The position numbers and the translations under genes are program-made. From Pigmentiphaga aceris (GTDB lineage: Bacteria; Pseudomonadota; Gammaproteobacteria; Burkholderiales; Burkholderiaceae_B), in contig NZ_CP043046.1 of NCBI RefSeq assembly GCF_008119665.1, forward strand, positions 3,162,001 to 3,226,000: a DNA stretch of 64,000 nt. The letters are read 5' to 3'. The notes under the pieces were generated by a model. That model saw only the letters and a list, made by a program, of their open reading frames with translations, had not been told where the DNA came from and made no database searches. Shown piece by piece: positions 2,957 to 14,229 of this stretch (positions within the stretch are counted from its first letter, which is position 1; each line of letters begins with the position of its first letter).

Positions 2957-3298
2957 TTAGTCTGCCAGCCAGACATCCTCATAACCTGCCCGATCGATGA
3001 TGAACTTCGCCCCGGCAGGCAGACACAGATAGTTCACCACCTGCGGCAACAGCTCATGCAAATGGGTGGCGTGCAGCGCCTGATAAAAGTCAGGTGACGG
3101 CGAATGCTCGCCGGCATGGATGAACCAGCTGATCGTCCCGTTCTCCGGCAACACGATCCGCGTGCCATAGATCGGGGACTGATCCAGCGACGCCAGGGCA
3201 ATGGCCACCATGTCATCGGGTAGCTGCACGGGTAACCCGTACTTTTCGCAGATGGTTTTCTGCGCGTCCGTTGGGGCAGATGATCCGGGTGCTTGCAT
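2957..3298 (-). CDS. small Imm33-like protein
   Basis: A 113-residue soluble protein that converges on the DUF4153 pair, with stops 4 bp apart. The C-terminal half (HLHELLPQVVNYLCLPAG, then a YEDVW motif near the end) and the central WF.HAGE segment recall the Imm33/DUF2185 group of immunity-like proteins. I assign this from memory of the motif pattern, not from a search. No polymorphic toxin lies next to it, so a toxin-immunity role is not supported by context. The start is the ATG at 3298. Confidence 0.5.
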   Translation of the reverse strand: MQAPGSSAPTDAQKTICEKYGLPVQLPDDMVAIALASLDQSPIYGTRIVLPENGTISWFIHAGEHSPSPDFYQALHATHLHELLPQVVNYLCLPAGAKFIIDRAGYEDVWLAD

Positions 3299-3408: not shown

Positions 3409-4572
3409 TTATTTAGCGGGTTGTTTTCTGGCCTCGGTCTGTTTGCCCTGCGCCCTGCCCTGCTCGACAAGGCTTGCAAGTTCTTTACGCAGGTTCAGAA
3501 CCTCTTGCTCGGAAGCACGCTGACTATCGACGGCCGCTTGAATCGCAGCCTGTGCATCCGCTTTTTCTTGCGCCCGTTGCTCGTCAGCGCGGACACGTTC
3601 TTCGCTGATCGCCGCAAGCCGGCCTTCCAAGGCACCAAGCTTGCCCTGCCACTGTGCCGACTGATCGTGCCATTTTGCCGCCTCGGCTGCGGCGGCCTCG
3701 GTCTTGGCGCCTAGTTGCGTTTGAGCCTGCATCAACGCCTTGTCCAACTGCGCCGCCCGCATGCGCTCGCGGTCCAGTTCCAGCAAATTGTGCTTGTGCT
3801 GCGCATCGAAGCGCGCCTGAATGCCCGACAGCGCATCCCGCGATTCAGCGTGGGCAGCGCTCAGCGCACGGCGGTGATCTTCATGCGCCGCCGCCAAACC
3901 AGCCTGAACCTCGGCCAGAGCCTCGCGCAGCGTCGATTCCCGCGCCGCAAATGCCTCACGCAGATCGGCTTCCCGCAGGCTGGCCGCCTGCTGCTGCGCC
4001 TTCGCGTACGCGTCCCGGACATTGATCGACTCGCGATGTGCAGCGGTCTCGGCTGACAAGCGCTCACGCAGCTCGTCGGCTTCCTTGACCGCATCCAGAT
4101 GCTGCGCGCGCGCCTGCTGCAAGGCGTCTTGCTGTTCGGCATGCAGCTTCTGCAAGTCTTCAAGTTCAGCCTGCACCGAACCAAGCCTGGTCAGCGTCTG
4201 CGCCAAGGCGTCAGCCGCCTCGCTGCGCTGCGCATCAAACGTCTGCTCGGCATGTTGCTTGGCTTCACGCCACAGACTCATCGTCAGTTCTGCAGCGGCA
4301 TTTTTCAGGCCATCGGGCATATCCGCATGATCGATTTTCACGCGCGACTGTTCTCGCAAGCTGTTCCAGAACGCCCCAAGCGCCGCCGCCGGCGCAGACA
4401 TGCTGCCCTTGCGCACTAGCTGATACAGCCGATTTGCCGTCGGCGTCTGCCCGTACCGGAAGAACATCAACGCACAGGTCTCGCGATACAGCTCGGCCGT
4501 GTTCGAAAACTGCGCGCGCAGCGCGTCAACGTCGTTTTGCAGCTGCTGATCGGGCGTTGGCGCGGTTTGCAT
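3409..4572 (-). CDS. KfrA-family coiled-coil DNA-binding protein
   Basis: A 387-residue protein. Residues ~10-110 form a compact helical domain (VDALRAQF, RYGQTPTANRLYQLV) matching the N-terminal domain of plasmid KfrA proteins. Residues ~115-370 are an almost unbroken alanine-, glutamate- and glutamine-rich coiled coil. KfrA proteins bind their own promoter and form filaments or dimers through the coil, and they help stable inheritance of some plasmids. Chromosomal homologues occur next to integrases. GGAG stands 6 nt before the ATG. The AT-rich upstream sequence carries palindromes that could be its operator. I infer autorepression; it is not shown. Confidence 0.75.
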   Translation of the reverse strand: MQTAPTPDQQLQNDVDALRAQFSNTAELYRETCALMFFRYGQTPTANRLYQLVRKGSMSAPAAALGAFWNSLREQSRVKIDHADMPDGLKNAAAELTMSLWREAKQHAEQTFDAQRSEAADALAQTLTRLGSVQAELEDLQKLHAEQQDALQQARAQHLDAVKEADELRERLSAETAAHRESINVRDAYAKAQQQAASLREADLREAFAARESTLREALAEVQAGLAAAHEDHRRALSAAHAESRDALSGIQARFDAQHKHNLLELDRERMRAAQLDKALMQAQTQLGAKTEAAAAEAAKWHDQSAQWQGKLGALEGRLAAISEERVRADEQRAQEKADAQAAIQAAVDSQRASEQEVLNLRKELASLVEQGRAQGKQTEARKQPAK

Positions 4573-4994: not shown

Positions 4995-5543
4995 TCACCC
5001 GCTTTTGATCAGTTCAAGCACCTCTCGAAACCCCGGGTGTTCGCAGCTGCCCAGCCACTCAAACGCCACCATCTCGTGGGTCACGATGATCGCCCCCGCA
5101 TGGCTCAGGCGATGCATTGCCGCGTCGTGATCTTGCGGCTTTCGGGACCCGCAGGCATTGGCCACCACCCAAACCTGCTTGCCCGCACGCAGCAGTCCAA
5201 GCGCCGTTTGAAGCAGGCACACATGCGCCTCACAACCCGCCACCACAATCTGCCTGGCCCCATTTGCCGAGGTTTGAATGGCGTCCAGCAAGCCATCGGC
5301 GCACGCGTCAAAATGCATTTTTTCCACGATCTCGTCGCAAAGCACACGCAAGGCCTCGACGTTTGGCCCGAGTTTCGTTGGGTTCTGTTCGGTTCCCAAC
5401 ACGGGAATGCCCAGGATCTTCGCAGCCTGCGCCAGCAATACGGCATTCGCGGACGCACGCGCCGCATCATGAATGGCAGGCATCAGGCGCGCCTGGTAGT
5501 CAACCAGCACCAAGAGAGATGACTTTGCGCGGATGGTGTCCAT
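4995..5543 (-). CDS. isochorismatase-family cysteine hydrolase
   Basis: A 182-residue cytosolic hydrolase of the isochorismatase/nicotinamidase superfamily. The catalytic triad is visible: Asp15 in LVLVDYQ, Lys75 in VEKMHFD, and Cys109 in EAHVCLLQT, with the usual cis-peptide region just before it (VVAGCEAH). Length is normal for YcaC-like or small isochorismatase hydrolases. The substrate cannot be told from sequence: amides, nicotinamide-like compounds and isochorismate are all possible. No siderophore or phenazine genes lie nearby. It is monocistronic, with a minus-strand terminator downstream. Confidence 0.85.
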   Translation of the reverse strand: MDTIRAKSSLLVLVDYQARLMPAIHDAARASANAVLLAQAAKILGIPVLGTEQNPTKLGPNVEALRVLCDEIVEKMHFDACADGLLDAIQTSANGARQIVVAGCEAHVCLLQTALGLLRAGKQVWVVANACGSRKPQDHDAAMHRLSHAGAIIVTHEMVAFEWLGSCEHPGFREVLELIKSG

Positions 5544-5874: not shown

Positions 5875-7797
5875 CTAGTGAGTGAAAGCGTCGAGAGCAG
5901 CATCAGCACGCGCACAGTGCTTAGCAAGCATAGGTTCGATTTTCACCAAACGACGGAGCTTAGGCAGGAAAGCCTTGGCGGCGTTTTTATCGCTAGTTTC
6001 GAAAACGATTTCGGTGATCCATTCACCTGAGAATCGCGCCCATTCCTCAGGATCCTTAAAAGAGGCCGCTGTAGTCAGAACAATCCTCAGTTCTTCGTTT
6101 AAGTCTCCAGCAAGACGCTTCCTACGACGCATTACTCTCGTAAATACACGGAGGGCGTCTGCAAGATTTCTACTACGAGTGACCGCAGCAAGAGTTGCTA
6201 GGCCGACCACAAGATCGAAATTCTTGTCTTTGTCTTCCGTGCTCTCGAGAGAAAACCTGACACGTCGCAAAGCGTCCGCTGCCATGCTTGCCATAGCTTC
6301 CTCCATGTCAAATAACAACGCACAGTTCACAAGCCCTGCAAATGCTTTTGCCTCAAGACGATCGGCTGCAAGCGCTGCCTTTACCTCAACCAGCCACTCG
6401 TCAGGGTAGGGCCGCTTGGCTGCGATAGCCCCTTCCATCGGACCAGGAAGAAGAGGGAAAGGCCACTGAGTAGCTTGCATAAGCTTTGAGTTTGGACCGA
6501 GGAGGAGTTTGCTTAAAGAATCGACTTTGATCTTATCTTCATTCAAATGCACTGCATTCGTGATGCGACCTATAAATTCAAAGCGAAGTTGTTCGGCACT
6601 CACGTAGTCTGGTAACCACCGTGGCTCACGACGGAGATCTACCAAGCCTTGTAAAAAATAAATCAGACCAAAACCTGTAGTACGAGCCCACTGTGTAACG
6701 CTCGCCACATCAATTCCCGCCTCGCTAATAGCGCGAATCATAAGCGAGGCGTGTGCGATTGCAGCTTGCCTGAAATAGAAAGGCGGGACGTCACCAAGAA
6801 TGCGCTTCCTTGCGAGCTCAGAAGCTGTCATGACAACCATAGAACTCAAGATAGCAAAACCACCGCCGTCATCTTCGGGATCATCCGACAATAGTGCTTC
6901 GACTATTAGCTCAATAAACGGAGCAAGCACCGGAACGACATCCAAATGAGCAAGGGCTACCTCCACCGCCCCGATTCGCGAGATCGGATCACCATGCTTG
7001 GCAATCCACTCATAAGCCTGGACAAGTTCACTATGATTAAGCCTATCGATTTTTATGCAGCCTGCAATCGACCCTGCCGAGCACATCAACAAAGAGAAAA
7101 CAAAACTCTGCCAGCCCTTATAAAATTGAAGACTTTCGACACAAACTTTTGCTCCAGTCTCAATATAGTCGGCAAAAGTGGTGCTTTGCTCAAGCTTTCC
7201 AACAAGACGCTCATAGTAACGAAAATCATGCGGCACCAATCTTGCCGGCTCCATCCTCATCGTCCCCATATCATTCTGAAGAGTAAGAATAAAACTTCTT
7301 GGTGACAGCCTAATATCCACCATCAACTCTGAAAAATCGTTATCACTAAGTGCTGATTGCTGCATACGGGTTAGCCAACCACGGCTATTTTCACGATCTA
7401 GAAAAACCTCCGAAGCCGCTTTCTCCAACCAGCCAACTCGAACTGCCACATCATCTGCAAGTGCGGAGTGGTCTCTCAAATAATAGTGCTTTTCCCCGCC
7501 ACTCAATAAGAATTCAATGCCGTCACCCTGAGGCCGAGTAAGCAACTGCCAAACCAAGCCATCACTATCTTCAATTTCAATAGCAGAACCCACGTCTCGG
7601 ATGGCACCCCGAATACCTTGATATAGCTGACTACGATCAAAAGATGGTCCATCTGGCCCTATCGTGAGGATGCCGATCGTATCGATACCCCATCTTTGAG
7701 TAAATGCACCATCATCAAGCAGAGCGCTCTGAACATCGAAAGGGAAAAGATTAAAAGCCGCTTGAATAAGCCTTTCCTTGAGGACACTATGATCCAT
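5875..7797 (-). CDS. uncharacterised ~640-aa helical protein, second gene of the lipase/PIN operon
   Basis: I do not recognise this family. The first ~150 residues look mixed alpha/beta (GIDTIGILTIGPDGPSFD, VWQLLTRPQG). From ~200 on the protein is mostly helical and leucine/alanine-rich, resembling ARM/HEAT-type repeats. There is no signal peptide, clear membrane segment, P-loop or nuclease motif. I chose the ATG at 7797. It overlaps the end of the upstream gene by 11 bp, which implies translational coupling; longer in-frame starts would lie deep in that gene. GC content and codon use are lower than in the flanks, as in its partner. It probably acts with the upstream lipase-repeat-PIN protein, as a subunit or sensor. 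Confidence 0.7.
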   Translation of the reverse strand: MDHSVLKERLIQAAFNLFPFDVQSALLDDGAFTQRWGIDTIGILTIGPDGPSFDRSQLYQGIRGAIRDVGSAIEIEDSDGLVWQLLTRPQGDGIEFLLSGGEKHYYLRDHSALADDVAVRVGWLEKAASEVFLDRENSRGWLTRMQQSALSDNDFSELMVDIRLSPRSFILTLQNDMGTMRMEPARLVPHDFRYYERLVGKLEQSTTFADYIETGAKVCVESLQFYKGWQSFVFSLLMCSAGSIAGCIKIDRLNHSELVQAYEWIAKHGDPISRIGAVEVALAHLDVVPVLAPFIELIVEALLSDDPEDDGGGFAILSSMVVMTASELARKRILGDVPPFYFRQAAIAHASLMIRAISEAGIDVASVTQWARTTGFGLIYFLQGLVDLRREPRWLPDYVSAEQLRFEFIGRITNAVHLNEDKIKVDSLSKLLLGPNSKLMQATQWPFPLLPGPMEGAIAAKRPYPDEWLVEVKAALAADRLEAKAFAGLVNCALLFDMEEAMASMAADALRRVRFSLESTEDKDKNFDLVVGLATLAAVTRSRNLADALRVFTRVMRRRKRLAGDLNEELRIVLTTAASFKDPEEWARFSGEWITEIVFETSDKNAAKAFLPKLRRLVKIEPMLAKHCARADAALDAFTH

Positions 7798-10700
7798 TTC
7801 TCGCCCCCAACCTCTCCACTGACAATTCAACATATTGGGCAACGACCTCCTTGGCTCGTTCGAGCAAAAGCGCATACATCTCTTGGTCTTCATCAGCAAT
7901 TTTATTTAGAATACGAGACACAAACCAGCGCCAATAGGCCTCTTTAACCGATTGAGTCTGATCCACAACCAGCATCATCAGAAGAGCTACCCAATCAAGA
8001 TATCGATCTTTCAAACGCTGCGCTTCCTCGTTCAGACGATGCGTCCAACCTCGGGCATCACACAGTATCAAAATCCAGTCTGATCGCGCACATGCTGCCA
8101 CCTCGTTCAGATCATCAACCCATTGCTCCTTCAGCACAAGAACTGAAACACTGAGCAAGTCGTTTAACCAGGTAGCCTCCTTTGGTAACTGAAGAAGGTC
8201 ACACATGCGGATCCGTTGGACACTTTCCCGAATGAGTCGCAGCTCTGCAGTTTCAACAAGATCTCCATCAACAATCGGTGCACTAGAAACAAATTCTGAT
8301 AGCTCTCTATGGCTGATCGGCAGAATCGCATAGTTCGCGCGACGCAACGCCGTCTTAGCCTCCAAAATTCTTGCTGAAGACAGGACACCACGACGCTCTA
8401 GAGAATCCAGCAAATCCAAAGTCGTCAGCAACGGCTTAGTAGACACGCCTGAAGATATGAAAAGATGTTGATTAATGAATCTGTCATCACTAACACCTGC
8501 TTCTGCACTATCGATCAGCTTTAGCATAGCAGTGGACGGGTGCACCAAGGCTCCACTAGCATCATCGTCATCATCAACACGAATCGCCTTCCCCAAACCT
8601 ACCCTCCCACTTTCAAGTGCATTTTTTAATTTAATCCGCAGCCCGTCTACAATATTAACAACCGCGGCACTGCTCGCATCATGGCTAATGAGTGCATCCG
8701 CCTCATCTATTTCGCTTTGAGGGATTACCACCGTAATGTCGGCACGATGCAGCTTCTGTAGCAGCCCGAGAAATTCGAGATGAGAGATAGTGATATCATC
8801 TAAATATAAAATAGCTCCATCCGCTATAAACTTAGGCGGCCAAGGTGTTTCCCGCAGTTTGAGCGATTCGCGAGCGTCGTGGGCCTCGCTCACGGTTAGA
8901 ACAGCTTTTTGCGCAAGTTTCTCAACCAGGTCCACAGCGCTACAGAGGTACGGCATATAATCAGTGAGATCAGCCTCTTCTTTCATGAAAGTACTGACCC
9001 TATGGATAGGCCCACCCCTCACAACCAGTCGCTGCCTTTGGTCTGAATGATTAGGGTCTGAAGCTTCCGCAAGCAGCAATGCCAGCGAATCGCCAACCTC
9101 GCTGATTAGATTGTCAGGTGCATATGAATCTCCATCAAAAGCCAGCAGATGCTGGTCAGAGATCATTCGCCGAAGCGCTCGAGCAGCAGCAACCCGACTG
9201 GGTTGGTGAAATAAAATCTGAGCCTTTTCGTTCAACAACCAGCCAAGTGTGTTGTGGGGAATGAGAATCTTATCGAATGTTGAGACGTATATGTCAAAAA
9301 CTCCCAGCAATTCAGCTGTCATCAAAGACGTTGGATCTATGGCAATCGTCTGAGGATCGACCACGGATGATTTACGCGCACCGCTAAATGCATGAACAAT
9401 TGATCGCTGGCGAACGTCCTGCTCGTCGACATTAACCAGTGCTGACCAAAGAAAAACATTAAGAAGCGAACGGTTTAAAATTTTACCGAAAGTGAATTGA
9501 GGAATCTCCCCTCGGGTGAGTAAATTCCTAGCATTCGTCTCGCGCTCATCCCACGCAGGCTTTCGCTCGACAATGTCCTCGATTGATAACCTTTGGATGA
9601 GGCCATCACCCGCCTGCTCCGACAGCACAGCACTCTGCTCGAACCATTGAAACACTTCGCGACTTTCTTCCCAACCCGCCGAAACAGCTGCGTGATAACA
9701 ACCAATAAGGGTTTTTGCATCTCCGTCTGCTCTCGCCGCAGCATCACAAACAAGATCCTTTCCTCGCACAGCTCCAATAAGCTGCGCAATCTGTCCCGCG
9801 CTGAGCAACTCCTCCGGCGTTCTCTCTAACCGATTGCTCCACTCGCCTTCTACAAACCCTTGCAATGAGTCCCAGTCGCCAGAAGCGATCGTCAAGCTGA
9901 CCTGCAATTGGCGCGCACCAGTTGAATCGGAATTTTTCCGCAGAGTATTTAAAACCAACTGCGCTTTTTTGATATTACCTTGCTCAAAAAGAGTACGAGC
10001 GTAGAGCAGACGCGCGTTGTCATACTGAGCGTCTAGGTTTTCGTATTCAGAGAATACTGTCAGCACCTCTTCCAAATGCTCTTGGTTGTATAACGCGACC
10101 ACATACCGGTGTGCGTCTGAAATATCACCAGTTTTTGCTAACAAATGCTTACCGTATTCGACAACCTTTTCCCAATTCCCCGCATTTTCATAGGCATCGA
10201 CGAGAAGCCGTAGGTCAACGACAGATCTGCTGTTTTCGTAGGCTGCAAGTCGACCAACGATAGGATCATTGCCAGCAATTTCTCTAAGTAGAAGACTTAG
10301 CCTATTTTCCTCATTTGGCGCAAGCCCCTTTTCTACAGCCTCTCGCAGAAGAATTTCTGCTTGCGCGAATTGCCCTGATCTAGCGAGCGCCTCAATCTCA
10401 AGCAAATAAACCCCTTTCCACTCAATATGGTCCAGAAGTTGGGCACGATGTTTGTTTAAATATGAGGCTGTAGAAGCGTAACCTCCCTGAACAAGGGCTA
10501 GCGAGAAGCGGGCGACTGCTGCATCGGGCGAGGCACCGCCGCTTAGCACGGTCTGACGATCGACTTCCTTTTCAACTTGCGATAGATCAATCTCGATACC
10601 GAACTGCACGGCTAAATTCAGGCGTCGAAGAAGTACCGCCGGATCCCTTAGGCTCGTTTCCAACTCCCTTCGGGCGGCCGCTGCATATTCTGGATCCCTC

Positions 10701-12424
10701 AGTCTAAGCCAAAGCGCTCGATCACTTGAATCGCCCGCATGTAAGGGCAAACCAAGCGCAGTTGCGACCACTGTCAACTGATCATAGAGTTCGATAGCTT
10801 TTCTTCTGTCGCGGAGACGATCAGGCTCACTTCGCAGCGGAAAGCTCGCTGCATTGCTGGGTAGATACTGACGCGGCAGCAGTCGCAGTTCATCTGGTAC
10901 AGCTTGAGAAAGATGAGCATCTGCGGCGAGCCTTAGAATCGCAGGTGTTCGATCGAAATCGACATTACTCAGTGCAGTTGCAGCTTCACATGCAATATCC
11001 CACGCCCCTGCCTCCAGCGCAGCCCCGATATGGAAGAACTTTGCATCGCTATCAAGATCACTCTTAGTTAAGCCAGCTTGACAAAGCCAAATTTCAGCCT
11101 CTTCAAAGCCTTTATCCTTTTGAACGCAAATGTAAGCAGCCCCACGCGCTATTGGCGTATCGATAGCCGCTAGTTCCCCTAAGCCTTCTGCAAGGCTGCC
11201 GCCACCCTGTTTCAAAAAACTGCGAACAACTGCAATAAGTTCCCGGTTTGGAGTGGTGATTTGGTTTAACGCAAACTGGGCTTCGTCGGGCGCAGCGGTC
11301 GCTAGAAATCTCGCACACCACGCAAGAGCATCACTTTTAGAGCTGCTACTAGCCGCAGCAAGGGCACCGCTAGTTAGACTTATAACGAGCCGCCGCGCCT
11401 CGTCTACCGTATCGACGCTGCCAAAAAAACGACATTTTCGCAGGCGTTCCGTTTGATGAATAACCTCAGCATCGATAATTGCCGTATCCATCGCCAGTAC
11501 AAGCGGCCTTTTTTCCAATGTGCGCTCGAAGGCTTCAAGAGCCAGAGTTTGCTCTTGACTCTGTATGATAAGTTGCTTCAGTTGACTAGTGTTATTTTCG
11601 ACAGCCTCGACGATCGGAGCTTTAGATGGCCAGATAAAAGAGCGAGCTATAAAATCTTTTACATGAATGTATACGTCCGCTTCCCGACTTGCTGGTTTGC
11701 AAATAGTTGTATGACTTTCATCTACAGTAATAGAGAGCTCAGGTAATCCTGGATCAGCACTATCCGACCAGACTACTCTTCCTAGTGTTTCTGGAAGATT
11801 AATTCCGAAGACGCGTTCTGGACGCCCCTCGGCCAAGACAAGATGTTCTATGCCATTGGCCTGACTCTTTTTTCGGTACCAGCGATTGAGATCTTTCAGC
11901 TGTGGACTGCCAAGAAGAAGATCTCGAGTTGCAGCCGAAGGCCGCAGGAAGAACACCCTCAGCGTCATAGCAATATTGGCAAGAATCGCCCCCCGGTGTG
12001 GTGTGCCTAAAAAGGCAATGCGCCTAACGCGTGACAAAAAGTGCTCCGCCTTTCTATTGCTAGCAGCATCCCGTTCGGCACCCCTAAGCAGTTGCTCAAC
12101 TATGAGACCGCCGAGACTATGAACGACGAAGATAACATTCCCCTTTGCTAAAAGAGGTTCTGAAAGTAGCCTCGCAAGAATGTTGTCCGCCCGATCAGCT
12201 AACGTCAGTGCGATGCCACCCCAATTAGTTTTTGGAGCAGGATAGCCAACAAGCCATATGCCTAACCCAGCAATATCCTCTGACAGCCAGCTTGGCCATA
12301 GCACCGGTGGAGTTGACGCCATAGAGGTCCAAGTCTTACTTATGTCGCCAGATAGTCCATGTACAAAAATGACATGAGTATCGGCATTTGAATGGTTGCC
12401 TGCGATAGCACGGAGCTCAGTCAG
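7787..12424 (-). CDS. lipase-like hydrolase / helical repeat / PIN-like fusion protein, ~1545 aa
   Basis: Domains are given in numbering from a CTG start at 12424. Residues ~15-270 are a DUF676/SERAC1-like alpha/beta hydrolase with VIFVHGLSG (oxyanion region), nucleophile Ser103 in VVHSLGG, LGTPHRG and a likely catalytic His238 in ESHTTICKP. Residues ~300-950 are helical repeats of TPR type. Residues ~1021-1140 and ~1199-1330 look like PIN-type segments: IAIDPTSLMTAELLG, then LYLDDITISHLEFLG, an acidic SEIDEADAL and a DDRFIN motif. No NTPase P-loop is present. The start needs care. The first ATG (12322) would remove the conserved VIFVHGLSG strand, whereas GAGGAG lies 6 nt before the CTG (3 nt before an ATT). 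It probably forms an operon with the gene it overlaps. I infer an effector plus sensor protein of a defence-type system; this is not demonstrated. Confidence 0.75.
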   Translation of the reverse strand: MTELRAIAGNHSNADTHVIFVHGLSGDISKTWTSMASTPPVLWPSWLSEDIAGLGIWLVGYPAPKTNWGGIALTLADRADNILARLLSEPLLAKGNVIFVVHSLGGLIVEQLLRGAERDAASNRKAEHFLSRVRRIAFLGTPHRGAILANIAMTLRVFFLRPSAATRDLLLGSPQLKDLNRWYRKKSQANGIEHLVLAEGRPERVFGINLPETLGRVVWSDSADPGLPELSITVDESHTTICKPASREADVYIHVKDFIARSFIWPSKAPIVEAVENNTSQLKQLIIQSQEQTLALEAFERTLEKRPLVLAMDTAIIDAEVIHQTERLRKCRFFGSVDTVDEARRLVISLTSGALAAASSSSKSDALAWCARFLATAAPDEAQFALNQITTPNRELIAVVRSFLKQGGGSLAEGLGELAAIDTPIARGAAYICVQKDKGFEEAEIWLCQAGLTKSDLDSDAKFFHIGAALEAGAWDIACEAATALSNVDFDRTPAILRLAADAHLSQAVPDELRLLPRQYLPSNAASFPLRSEPDRLRDRRKAIELYDQLTVVATALGLPLHAGDSSDRALWLRLRDPEYAAAARRELETSLRDPAVLLRRLNLAVQFGIEIDLSQVEKEVDRQTVLSGGASPDAAVARFSLALVQGGYASTASYLNKHRAQLLDHIEWKGVYLLEIEALARSGQFAQAEILLREAVEKGLAPNEENRLSLLLREIAGNDPIVGRLAAYENSRSVVDLRLLVDAYENAGNWEKVVEYGKHLLAKTGDISDAHRYVVALYNQEHLEEVLTVFSEYENLDAQYDNARLLYARTLFEQGNIKKAQLVLNTLRKNSDSTGARQLQVSLTIASGDWDSLQGFVEGEWSNRLERTPEELLSAGQIAQLIGAVRGKDLVCDAAARADGDAKTLIGCYHAAVSAGWEESREVFQWFEQSAVLSEQAGDGLIQRLSIEDIVERKPAWDERETNARNLLTRGEIPQFTFGKILNRSLLNVFLWSALVNVDEQDVRQRSIVHAFSGARKSSVVDPQTIAIDPTSLMTAELLGVFDIYVSTFDKILIPHNTLGWLLNEKAQILFHQPSRVAAARALRRMISDQHLLAFDGDSYAPDNLISEVGDSLALLLAEASDPNHSDQRQRLVVRGGPIHRVSTFMKEEADLTDYMPYLCSAVDLVEKLAQKAVLTVSEAHDARESLKLRETPWPPKFIADGAILYLDDITISHLEFLGLLQKLHRADITVVIPQSEIDEADALISHDASSAAVVNIVDGLRIKLKNALESGRVGLGKAIRVDDDDDASGALVHPSTAMLKLIDSAEAGVSDDRFINQHLFISSGVSTKPLLTTLDLLDSLERRGVLSSARILEAKTALRRANYAILPISHRELSEFVSSAPIVDGDLVETAELRLIRESVQRIRMCDLLQLPKEATWLNDLLSVSVLVLKEQWVDDLNEVAACARSDWILILCDARGWTHRLNEEAQRLKDRYLDWVALLMMLVVDQTQSVKEAYWRWFVSRILNKIADEDQEMYALLLERAKEVVAQYVELSVERLGARNGS

Positions 12425-12436
12425 AATATACTCCTC
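12422..12436 (-). promoter_or_regulatory. strong ribosome binding site before a non-ATG start
   Basis: On the minus strand GAGGAG (12436-12431) is followed by TAT, ATT and CTG. ATT (12427) and CTG (12424) are the only start-like codons between the upstream in-frame TAA and the conserved VIFVHG strand. A five-codon ATG frame (12438) reads through this site and stops in TGA overlapping the CTG. That could be a leader peptide or chance. Confidence 0.5.
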
Positions 12437-13014: not shown

Positions 13015-14229
13015 ATGACCCTGGTAATTGCCGACGCCACTCCCCATCTTGCGCCTATCGAGACGACAGTGCTGCCGCGCGCGCTCGACGGCAGTCAGGG
13101 CGCAAACCGGGCAGTCGGCACGCGCGCCCAGATATCCGCCACCAATGACCCGGATGCGATCAAGGCGTGGCTGGCGCGCTTTGTGGACTCACCGACTACC
13201 TTTTCCAGCTATCGGAAAGAAGCGGAACGGCTGCTGTGGTGGTCGGTGCTGGAATGCGGCAAGCCCTTGTCGGGCCTGAACCATGAAGACCTGCTGGCCT
13301 ACCAGAATTTTCTGCGTGACCCGCAGCCCGCCGCGCGCTGGTGCATGCCGAACGGCCGCAAGTTCGGTCGGCTGGATGCGGGTTGGCGGCCGTTTTCAGG
13401 GCCGCTGTCGGCAAGCAGTCAGCGGCAGGCCATCGTGATCCTGAACACGCTGTTTTCCTGGCTGGTGAATGCGGGTTATCTGGCTGGCAACCCGCTGTCT
13501 TTGTCGCGCCAGCGACGCAGGCGTGCCGAGCCGCGCATCGTGCGGTATCTGGACGATGCTTCCTGGCAGGTGGTCAAGGACAGCATCGCCAGCGCGCCGC
13601 CTGACGACTTGCGTGCGGTGCGGGTGCGCTGGTTGTTCTCACTGCTATATATATGCGGCCTGCGTGTCTCGGAAGTGGCGGCCAATGACATGGGCGGCTT
13701 TTTCAGCCGGGTCGATCGCACCGGCGAAACGCGGTGGTGGCTGGAGATTCTTGGCAAGGGCGACAAGTTGCGCCTGGTGCCGGCCACCAGTGAATTGATG
13801 CAGGAACTGGCCCGCTATCGCCGGCAGCTGGGCCTGTCTGCGCTGCCGCAGCTCGGCGAAACCTTGCCGTTGCTGCTGCCCCTGGGCGGTGAGCCACGGC
13901 AAATGACGCGCGCGGCGCTTCACGCTGTCATCAAGCAGGTCTTCGCAGATGCCGCAGACAGTCTGCTGGCCCGCAATCCGGCTGCGGTTGTCCAGGCCGG
14001 GCGCATTCGTGCCGCATCGGCGCACTGGCTGCGGCACACGGCAGGCTCGGCGATGGCAAGTGGTGACATGGATTTGCGGCATGTACGCGACAACCTGGGG
14101 CACGAGTCGATTGCGACCACCAGTCGTTATCTGCACGCCGAAGATGACCACCGTCATGCCGAAACCGAGCGGGGACACCGGCTTTCCTGGCCGGACACGT
14201 CTGCCGGGCCAGTTTCGACAGATGCGTAA
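13015..14229 (+). CDS. tyrosine recombinase / integrase
   Basis: A 404-residue site-specific recombinase of the phage-integrase family. Residues ~45-160 form a SAM-like core-binding domain. The catalytic domain (~175-385) has a full active set: Arg217 in CGLRVSE, Lys248 in the GKGDK turn, His337 and Arg340 in HWLRH, His363 in LGHESI, and the nucleophile Tyr372 in SRYLHA. It therefore looks functional. GC content is like the core genome, unlike the low-GC operon to its left. It could mobilise that region, though no attachment sites were identified. No excisionase is seen nearby. Confidence 0.9.
   Translation: MTLVIADATPHLAPIETTVLPRALDGSQGANRAVGTRAQISATNDPDAIKAWLARFVDSPTTFSSYRKEAERLLWWSVLECGKPLSGLNHEDLLAYQNFLRDPQPAARWCMPNGRKFGRLDAGWRPFSGPLSASSQRQAIVILNTLFSWLVNAGYLAGNPLSLSRQRRRRAEPRIVRYLDDASWQVVKDSIASAPPDDLRAVRVRWLFSLLYICGLRVSEVAANDMGGFFSRVDRTGETRWWLEILGKGDKLRLVPATSELMQELARYRRQLGLSALPQLGETLPLLLPLGGEPRQMTRAALHAVIKQVFADAADSLLARNPAAVVQAGRIRAASAHWLRHTAGSAMASGDMDLRHVRDNLGHESIATTSRYLHAEDDHRHAETERGHRLSWPDTSAGPVSTDA

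What the first reader, a model, noticed from the sequence alone, without database searches (positions are those of the whole stretch)
5875..12424. Two-gene lipase / helical-repeat / PIN-like module with an unrecognised partner
The sequence shows a ~1545-aa protein with a complete serine-lipase-like N-terminus (HG, HSLGG, catalytic His), a long helical middle and C-terminal PIN-like segments. It is translationally coupled to a ~640-aa protein of no family I recognise. Lipase or nuclease effectors fused to repeat sensors are a known layout of bacterial immune proteins, but those usually carry a NACHT or STAND ATPase between effector and sensor, which is absent here. Lower GC than the flanks and a nearby intact integrase also fit a mobile defence module. 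That it is a defence system is inference.
Basis: partly seen in the sequence, partly recalled or inferred. Interest (0 to 1): 0.85.

Follow-up and report, generated by a model that had tools for sequence, protein, structure and literature searches.

The report
Split, lipase-armed GreAB-C/PIN defence operon
Two neighbouring bacterial genes look like a rare, horizontally moving anti-virus system in which a large lipase-like protein works with a partner that may recognise RNA polymerase, and the large gene appears to start at an unusual, conserved CTG codon.

Summary
A is a 1545-aa protein (12424..7787, minus strand): intact alpha/beta-hydrolase N-terminus, TPR repeats, C-terminal "HTH + double PIN" core. 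B is a 640-aa protein whose start overlaps A's stop by 11 nt. The partner is recognisable: Pfam finds Permuted_GreAB-C in B, HTH_upst_double_PIN and PIN-TPR-GreABC in A. The nearest described kind is the predicted TPR-GreA/B-C-PIN conflict system (Kaur 2021), there single proteins in mostly standalone genes. Here the core is split: 34 of 34 loci found carry B after A; three cyanobacterial proteins carry both halves fused. The N-terminus is swappable (hydrolase, HNH, PNP, SMEK, REase-like, membrane segment). Neighbours match many defence models (97 PADLOC families over 79 ORFs; 3 over 77 control ORFs). The hydrolase clade appears to start at a conserved CTG (11 of 11 readable loci; CTG is 17% at other invariant Leu columns). 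The adjacent integrase is probably not the vehicle: it belongs to a resident integrase-KfrA pair, contiguous in 19 of 19 relatives examined, that A/B interrupts. PIN and GreAB-C rest on Pfam alone; independent profile tests failed and structure prediction never ran. Verdict: a new variant of a predicted, untested defence kind.

The parts
7787..12424 (-). Gene A: alpha/beta-hydrolase - TPR - HTH - double PIN protein, 1545 aa from CTG
   Evidence: homologues L002, L003 and L016-L049
12422..12424 (-). Proposed CTG start codon, present in 11 of 11 hydrolase-type loci that could be read (13 scanned)
12431..12436 (-). GAGGAG Shine-Dalgarno-like sequence, 6 nt before the CTG
   Evidence: sequence; anti-SD duplex -8.9 kcal/mol
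11612..12379 (-). alpha/beta-hydrolase domain (A residues 16-271); Ser103 codon at 12116-12118; candidate His238
   Evidence: PADLOC DUF626_VIII 1.1e-28; Pfam below cut-off; motifs in 11 of 11
9908..10210 (-). TPR repeats (A residues about 739-839)
   Evidence: Pfam TPR_19 at 791-831, 26.3 bits, cut-off 25; further TPR models below cut-off
9374..9583 (-). HTH_upst_double_PIN PF24407 (A residues 948-1017)
   Evidence: 77.9 bits, E 7.5e-22
8969..9337 (-). Putative first PIN (A residues about 1030-1152); D1030 and E1066 in 32 of 32, D1152 in 30 of 32 rows
   Evidence: the fold is inferred from the naming of PF24407
8465..8806 (-). Second PIN, PF20698 PIN-TPR-GreABC (A residues 1207-1320); acids D1209, D/E1260, D1313, D1314, and D1337 just behind it
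   Evidence: 32.5 bits, cut-off 27.8
7787..7797 (-). 11-nt overlap of A stop and B start
5875..7797 (-). Gene B: 640 aa, Permuted_GreAB-C near the N-terminus, the rest without a Pfam family over cut-off
   Evidence: a homologous B follows A in 34 of 34 loci
7501..7659 (-). Permuted_GreAB-C PF24388 (B residues 47-99)
3409..4572 (-). KfrA_N gene, resident left flank of the insertion
4995..5543 (-). Isochorismatase-family gene inside the same gap; relation to A/B unknown
13015..14229 (+). Tyrosine integrase, resident right flank (neighbour of KfrA in relatives)

Best explanation
A and B are the two halves of one anti-invader machine, a split variant of the predicted TPR-GreA/B-C-PIN conflict systems. 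B (a GreAB-C-like head on a long body) together with A's TPR/HTH/double-PIN core forms the constant sensing and RNA-acting part, perhaps on RNA polymerase taken over by an invader. A's N-terminus is a swappable effector, here a serine alpha/beta-hydrolase expected to attack a lipid or ester when triggered, giving abortive defence. Shown here: co-occurrence, fusion elsewhere, effector swapping, conserved hydrolase motifs, defence-rich neighbourhood, sporadic distribution across distant hosts. Inferred: physical complex, RNA polymerase contact, PIN catalysis, lipid target, and defence itself.
For: Pfam architecture over cut-off in both proteins. B directly after A in 34 of 34 genome loci, best B match E <= 2e-31; B's start overlaps A's stop by 1-14 nt in 32 of 34, by the start I chose. 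Fusion: B profile against the C-termini of three cyanobacterial proteins, hhalign 91.6%, E 8.3e-7, three controls at most 0.5%. A and B distances correlate, r = 0.976 over 31 rows, shared descent included. Swappable N-termini: PNP, SMEK_N, HNH_2, near-cut-off Mrr_cat, membrane segment, hydrolase. Neighbours: 97 PADLOC families among 79 ORFs against 3 among 77 control ORFs. Hydrolase motifs invariant in 11 of 11. Prediction for the kind: PMC8195603 section 7. Precedents in print: alpha/beta-hydrolase as effector in other conflict systems (PMC7159879, passages); two systems whose PIN nuclease is needed for phage defence (PMC13092281, passages).
Against: No experiment. hhalign of the PIN regions against 22 VapC-type PINs, and of B against 22 GreA C-terminal domains (single or doubled), found nothing. 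No credible PDB relative by profile for the A core, B or the hydrolase. The first acid of the second PIN is N in the three cyanobacterial rows and in L014, 4 of the 9 rows of A1, so catalysis there is doubtful. Pfam sees the permuted GreAB-C in only one of the three fused proteins, below cut-off. In PADLOC only the hydrolase part of A matches; B matches nothing. Structure prediction never ran. The PADLOC control is a single genome.
Confidence: 0.62

Rival explanations
1. Toxin-restrainer pair: A is a suicide protein and B mainly holds it inactive, releasing it on infection, without acting on RNA polymerase.
For: Constant co-occurrence and gene overlap; A has conserved hydrolase motifs and acidic PIN-type residues.
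Against: Cyanobacterial proteins keep both halves in one chain; the published family has the GreA/B-C domain inside the effector protein; B is far larger than usual antitoxins.
Confidence: 0.2
2. The PIN-like and GreAB-C-like regions are degenerate scaffolds; sensing is by TPR/HTH and other surfaces and only the N-terminal effector is catalytic. This overlaps with the main reading and is not exclusive of it.
For: No profile match to VapC PINs or GreA; first acid of the second PIN is N in 4 of 9 rows of A1.
Against: D1030, E1066, D1313 and D1314 are in 32 of 32 and D1209 and D1337 in 31 of 32 rows of A6, as expected of metal-binding catalytic acids.
Confidence: 0.25
3. A non-defence cellular function (RNA turnover or transcription quality control) that happens to be mobile.
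For: RNA-related domain names; no activity data.
Against: Sporadic: 3 of 399 genomes of the order and 5 of 268 of the family, window included; tree not following species; defence-rich neighbours; swapped N-terminal enzymes.
Confidence: 0.08

Closest known systems
TPR-GreA/B-C-PIN conflict system (Kaur 2021, PMC8195603, Fig. 2K; Pfam PF20698)
   Same: Variable N-terminal effector, TPR repeats, PIN of the PF20698 type, a GreA/B-C-type domain; scattered distribution
   Different: Described as an effector fused to a constant TPR, GreA/B-C and PIN region, mostly standalone genes; here GreAB-C is of the permuted Pfam family and on a second gene, and a double PIN lies behind an HTH (PF24407). The paper speaks of 13 effectors besides EAD10; those its section 7 names do not include an alpha/beta-hydrolase, and 'lipase' and 'abhydrolase' occur 0 times in its main text; the source data were not seen
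Effector-STAND/NACHT immune proteins (bacterial NLRs, Avs; recalled)
   Same: Effector at the N-terminus, long repeat region behind it
   Different: No NTPase family detected in A or B
DUF676-like alpha/beta-hydrolases
   Same: FVHGLSG, HSLGG, LGTPHRG and a conserved His; PADLOC DUF626_VIII 1.1e-28
   Different: Below the Pfam cut-off in the window (17.7 against 20.3 bits; Agrobacterium 22.2); fused to the PIN core
VapBC and other PIN toxin-antitoxin systems
   Same: PIN-type nuclease named by Pfam
   Different: No small antitoxin, very large proteins, no profile similarity to VapC-type PINs

Membership tests
TPR-GreA/B-C-PIN conflict system | Variable effector at the N-terminus of a constant core | tested here: met
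   Hydrolase, PNP, SMEK_N, HNH_2, Mrr-like and membrane N-termini on a homologous core
TPR-GreA/B-C-PIN conflict system | TPR repeats | tested here: met
   TPR_19 26.3 bits, cut-off 25
TPR-GreA/B-C-PIN conflict system | PIN domain of its own type | tested here: met
   PF20698 over cut-off; independent detection against VapC-type PINs failed
TPR-GreA/B-C-PIN conflict system | GreA/B-C domain in the same polypeptide as TPR and PIN | tested here: not met
   Pfam finds only Permuted_GreAB-C, and it lies on B; B not matched to GreA profiles
TPR-GreA/B-C-PIN conflict system | Mostly standalone gene | tested here: not met
   Two-gene arrangement in 34 of 34 loci
TPR-GreA/B-C-PIN conflict system | Acts on RNA polymerase | not testable with these tools
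   Prediction of PMC8195603 only
STAND/NACHT immune proteins | STAND/NACHT NTPase | tested here: not met
   No NTPase family in A or B
alpha/beta-hydrolase (DUF676-like) | Oxyanion HG, nucleophile Ser in HSLGG, catalytic His | tested here: met
   Invariant in 11 of 11; Pfam cut-off reached in Agrobacterium, not in the window; activity not tested
alpha/beta-hydrolase (DUF676-like) | Catalytic acid | tested here: inconclusive
   Invariant D224 is a candidate; no structure
VapBC-type toxin-antitoxin | Small PIN toxin with small antitoxin | tested here: not met
   1545 and 640 aa; no match to VapC-type PINs

The most novel reading that the evidence does not exclude
The hydrolase-armed clade has kept a CUG start codon across alpha-, beta- and gamma-proteobacteria because weak, initiation-fidelity-dependent translation is part of the mechanism: the suicide protein stays scarce until infection disturbs initiation, so the start codon itself acts as a gate on a two-gene, RNA-polymerase-watching immune machine.
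Probability: 0.13. Interest if true: 0.8.

Novelty: new variant of a known kind. Interest (0 to 1): 0.58.

Why it matters
Effector proteins without a STAND ATPase need another trigger. If A/B responds to hijacked transcription, it would be an immune sensor of the invader's use of RNA polymerase. The split form gives two separable proteins, so the predicted and, as far as my searches show, untested GreA/B-C-PIN idea can be tested by pull-down and single-gene deletion. If CTG is the start, automatic annotation makes the protein too short: the one annotated hydrolase-type record that I opened (WP_347978740, L002) starts at a GTG 13 codons later, so clones made from annotation may lack its true beginning.

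Tried and rejected
Structure prediction of B (A5) and of the A core (A6) was asked for 28 times; each answer was "machine busy", so no model and no fold search exist.

Profile comparison of the PIN regions with 22 VapC-type PINs, and of B with 22 GreA C-terminal domains, single or doubled to allow permutation, found nothing. The first against the second PIN gave 4.3%, E 0.0096, in matching register over 39 columns: a weak hint of duplication. PDB searches gave only weak hits: designed pentatricopeptide proteins for whole A (best E 0.021), one chain each for the A core (E 0.68) and B (E 0.042), none for the hydrolase.

The integrase as carrier was rejected: 19 of 19 relatives fetched, out of 36 non-window genomes with the integrase, have KfrA next to it. 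No long flanking repeat marks the insertion ends (which lists only short, imperfect pairs). Same-genus comparison by DNA of the chemotaxis flank was uninformative.

No relatives in viral contigs (66 pattern matches, none confirmed), in phage records, or in the E. coli collection of 5,426 genomes (DNA search with the Providencia copy only). A genome scan with B alone found nothing. Searches failed because alignment A1 was too diverse. Paper gkad879 is not held; nothing here rests on it. PMC10853773 and PMC13092281 hold the letters 'GreA' in the passages seen only in words such as 'greater'.

Full report
What is there. On the minus strand, A runs from 12424 to 7787 and B from 7797 to 5875, with an 11-nt overlap of A's stop and B's start. 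GC is 0.456-0.508 in the bins from 6 to 13 kb, against 0.565-0.656 in the other bins of the first 30 kb. Pfam over cut-off: in A, HTH_upst_double_PIN (residues 948-1017, 77.9 bits), PIN-TPR-GreABC (1207-1320, 32.5 bits, cut-off 27.8) and TPR_19; in B, Permuted_GreAB-C (B residues 47-99, 54.2 bits). The hydrolase is below cut-off in Pfam (Abhydrolase_6 20.0, DUF676 17.7 bits) but strong in PADLOC (DUF626_VIII, 1.1e-28; I do not know which system that name stands for). No NTPase family appears in either protein.

Homologues. Plasmid records gave A/B pairs in two Agrobacterium fabrum records and one Methylophaga record (one of the two Agrobacterium records and the Methylophaga record were opened), and three cyanobacterial single proteins of 2125-2130 aa. 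A scan of genome contigs with a four-sequence A-core alignment gave 34 loci. All 34 have a B homologue as the ORF after A (best E between 0 and 1.4e-31). By the start nearest A's stop, 32 of 34 overlap by 1-14 nt; the exceptions are L020 (+9) and frame-broken L034 (+77). L043, L044 and L018 lie on contigs of the same lengths as G441, G415 and G1012, so those are not extra cases. Profile comparison of B with the C-terminal part (from residue 1426) of the cyanobacterial proteins gives 91.6%, E 8.3e-7, against at most 0.5% for three controls; Pfam itself sees the permuted GreAB-C there in only one of three, below cut-off. I take A and B to be one functional unit, split here and fused in cyanobacteria. 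Distances of A and B correlate at 0.976 over 31 rows, part of which is shared descent.

Swappable effector. N-termini by Pfam (ten N-termini scanned): PNP_UDP_1 (L027), SMEK_N (L028), HNH_2 (L029 and L035 over cut-off, L033 below it), Mrr_cat at 20.9 bits against 21 (L030); nothing convincing for L031, L036, L043 and L014. L044 and L047 look HNH-like by eye and were not scanned. Ten of the eleven loci that I labelled membrane type have a hydrophobic window over 1.6; L038 is cut by its contig end. One core fragment that is not of this type (L034) also reaches 1.61. On the A-core tree (37 rows) the 12 rows labelled hydrolase form one group (100/100) and the ten membrane rows another (100/100); HNH needs three changes. 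The label of L019 is by core kinship, since its contig ends before the hydrolase. L025, L034 and L042 were left out of A6; L031 was also left out of A5. The B tree (33 rows) agrees in outline, but its hydrolase group has only 56% bootstrap. Members of the membrane group come from distant hosts (Klebsiella, Vibrio, Advenella, Desulfopila, a Roizmanbacteria bin), which points to horizontal transfer; a metagenome bin may be contaminated.

Prevalence and context. Matches: A core in 3 of 399 genomes of the order; B in 5 of 268 of the family; PF24388 in 1 of 398 of the phylum; each count includes the window. For 21 of the 34 loci I took, as a rule, the two nearest ORFs of at least 150 codons on each side (79 ORFs): 97 PADLOC families matched at 1e-8 (the best-populated 25 are shown), including SduA (2.4e-233), mREase_IV, AbiEii, methylases and several PDC candidates. 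The control, 77 ORFs from ten stretches of the window's own genome, matched 3 families. These are families, not ORFs, and one ORF can match several, so the ratio overstates the number of defence genes. Pfam on the same 79 neighbours: 3 integrases, 2 resolvases, 2 AbiEii among the 25 families shown of 76.

The insertion site. The flanks are KfrA_N (3409-4572) and a tyrosine integrase (13015-14229), divergently placed. The integrase has close relatives in 37 of 268 family genomes, window included. In all 19 relatives whose upstream DNA I fetched (two of the genus, 17 of the family; 36 exist), KfrA lies 140-632 bp away between match starts, in the same divergent order. In the window the gap is 8.4 kb. 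A/B, with an isochorismatase gene, has therefore most simply entered a resident gene pair; how it entered is not known, and the 17 other relatives were not looked at.

The start codon. Thirteen hydrolase-type loci were scanned; in 11 the region can be read (not in L019 and L025). In these 11 the conserved protein begins at an invariant CTG, always 17 codons before the hydrolase motif. At 18 other invariant Leu columns CTG is used in 34 of 198 cells and never in more than 5 of 11. Anti-Shine-Dalgarno pairing before the CTG averages -7.7 kcal/mol, against -2.5 inside the genes; 1 of 1380 codon columns is as strong on average, though single rows are less striking (12.5% of in-gene codons match the weakest two). 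In the window, L016 and L018 there is no ATG, GTG or TTG between the upstream stop and the motif; six others have a GTG 13 codons later (L002, L020-L023, L026), and L017, L021 and L024 have alternatives upstream. An ATT directly before the CTG in the window is a conceivable rare start, but L018 has none. The 11 rows are related, so this is not 11 independent events. PMC11497404 (passages) says that initiator tRNA does not start efficiently on CUG. That CTG is the start is well supported; that it has a regulatory purpose is speculation. The first start codons listed for the other clades are mostly ATG.

Active sites. FVHGLSG, HSLGG, LGTPHRG and H238 are invariant in 11 of 11. In the A core (32 rows) D1030, E1066, D1313 and D1314 are invariant, D1209 and D1337 are in 31, D1152 in 30; position 1260 is E or D in 31. 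In the wider alignment A1 the residue at 1209 is N in four of nine rows: three cyanobacterial ones and L014. These patterns fit two PIN-type sites, but no independent fold evidence was obtained.

Mechanism. PMC8195603 (section 7 read in full, other passages by search; [quoted passage not shown] I adopt this as the likeliest scheme for A/B, with B supplying the polymerase-binding head in trans. Co-occurrence, fusion, swappable effectors and context are shown; binding, cutting, lipid attack and protection are inferred. Precedents for the parts: alpha/beta-hydrolases among effectors of other conflict systems (PMC7159879, passages) and two defence systems that need their PIN nuclease (PMC13092281, passages).

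Novelty. The searches of the held library that I made listed no paper that describes the split operon, Permuted_GreAB-C or HTH_upst_double_PIN. They are not exhaustive: cannot match the spelling with a slash, and only the first 20 of 135, 20 of 21, 10 of 19 and 10 of 36 papers were listed. The Pfam entries exist, so their authors knew the domains. The 2021 paper's source data, which may list more effectors or split forms, could not be opened. Two tested features of the described kind (GreA/B-C in the same protein, standalone gene) are not met, so I call A/B a new variant that probably works like it, not a plain member.

Host. Contigs G441:C13 and G415:C6 have the same lengths as the Advenella alkanexedens and Achromobacter piechaudii contigs, and both genomes are listed as the window's family. 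The window therefore most likely lies in an Alcaligenaceae genome; the genus was not determined.

Noticed in passing
window 12422-12424; also L002, L016-L018, L020-L024, L026: Conserved CTG start codon with a Shine-Dalgarno-like sequence in the hydrolase-type A genes; the plasmid record's gene (WP_347978740) starts at a GTG 13 codons later.
   Followed up: yes
window 3409-4572 and 13015-14229: A divergent KfrA-integrase gene pair is contiguous in 19 of 19 relatives fetched; its function is unknown, and in the window it is opened by 8.4 kb.
   Followed up: partly
window 4995-5543: Isochorismatase-family gene inside the same gap; may be cargo or part of the inserted element.
   Followed up: no
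window 2957-3298: Imm33-like domain protein (Pfam PF24719, E 3.1e-32), an immunity-type family by its name, just beyond KfrA.
   Followed up: no
L009 5598-11975, L010 5598-11975, L011 5595-11987: Cyanobacterial plasmid proteins of 2125-2130 aa with a REase-like N-terminus by eye (weak Mrr_cat in one of three), PIN core and B-like C-terminus in one chain; the first acid of the second PIN is N.
   Followed up: partly
L015 (G486): A B-like match lying in broken pieces, with no A gene recognised beside it; perhaps a decayed copy.
   Followed up: no
L014 (G411) and L073 (G789): Very divergent A/B pairs, the first near a TniQ-like ORF by eye, suggesting a wider, older family.
   Followed up: no
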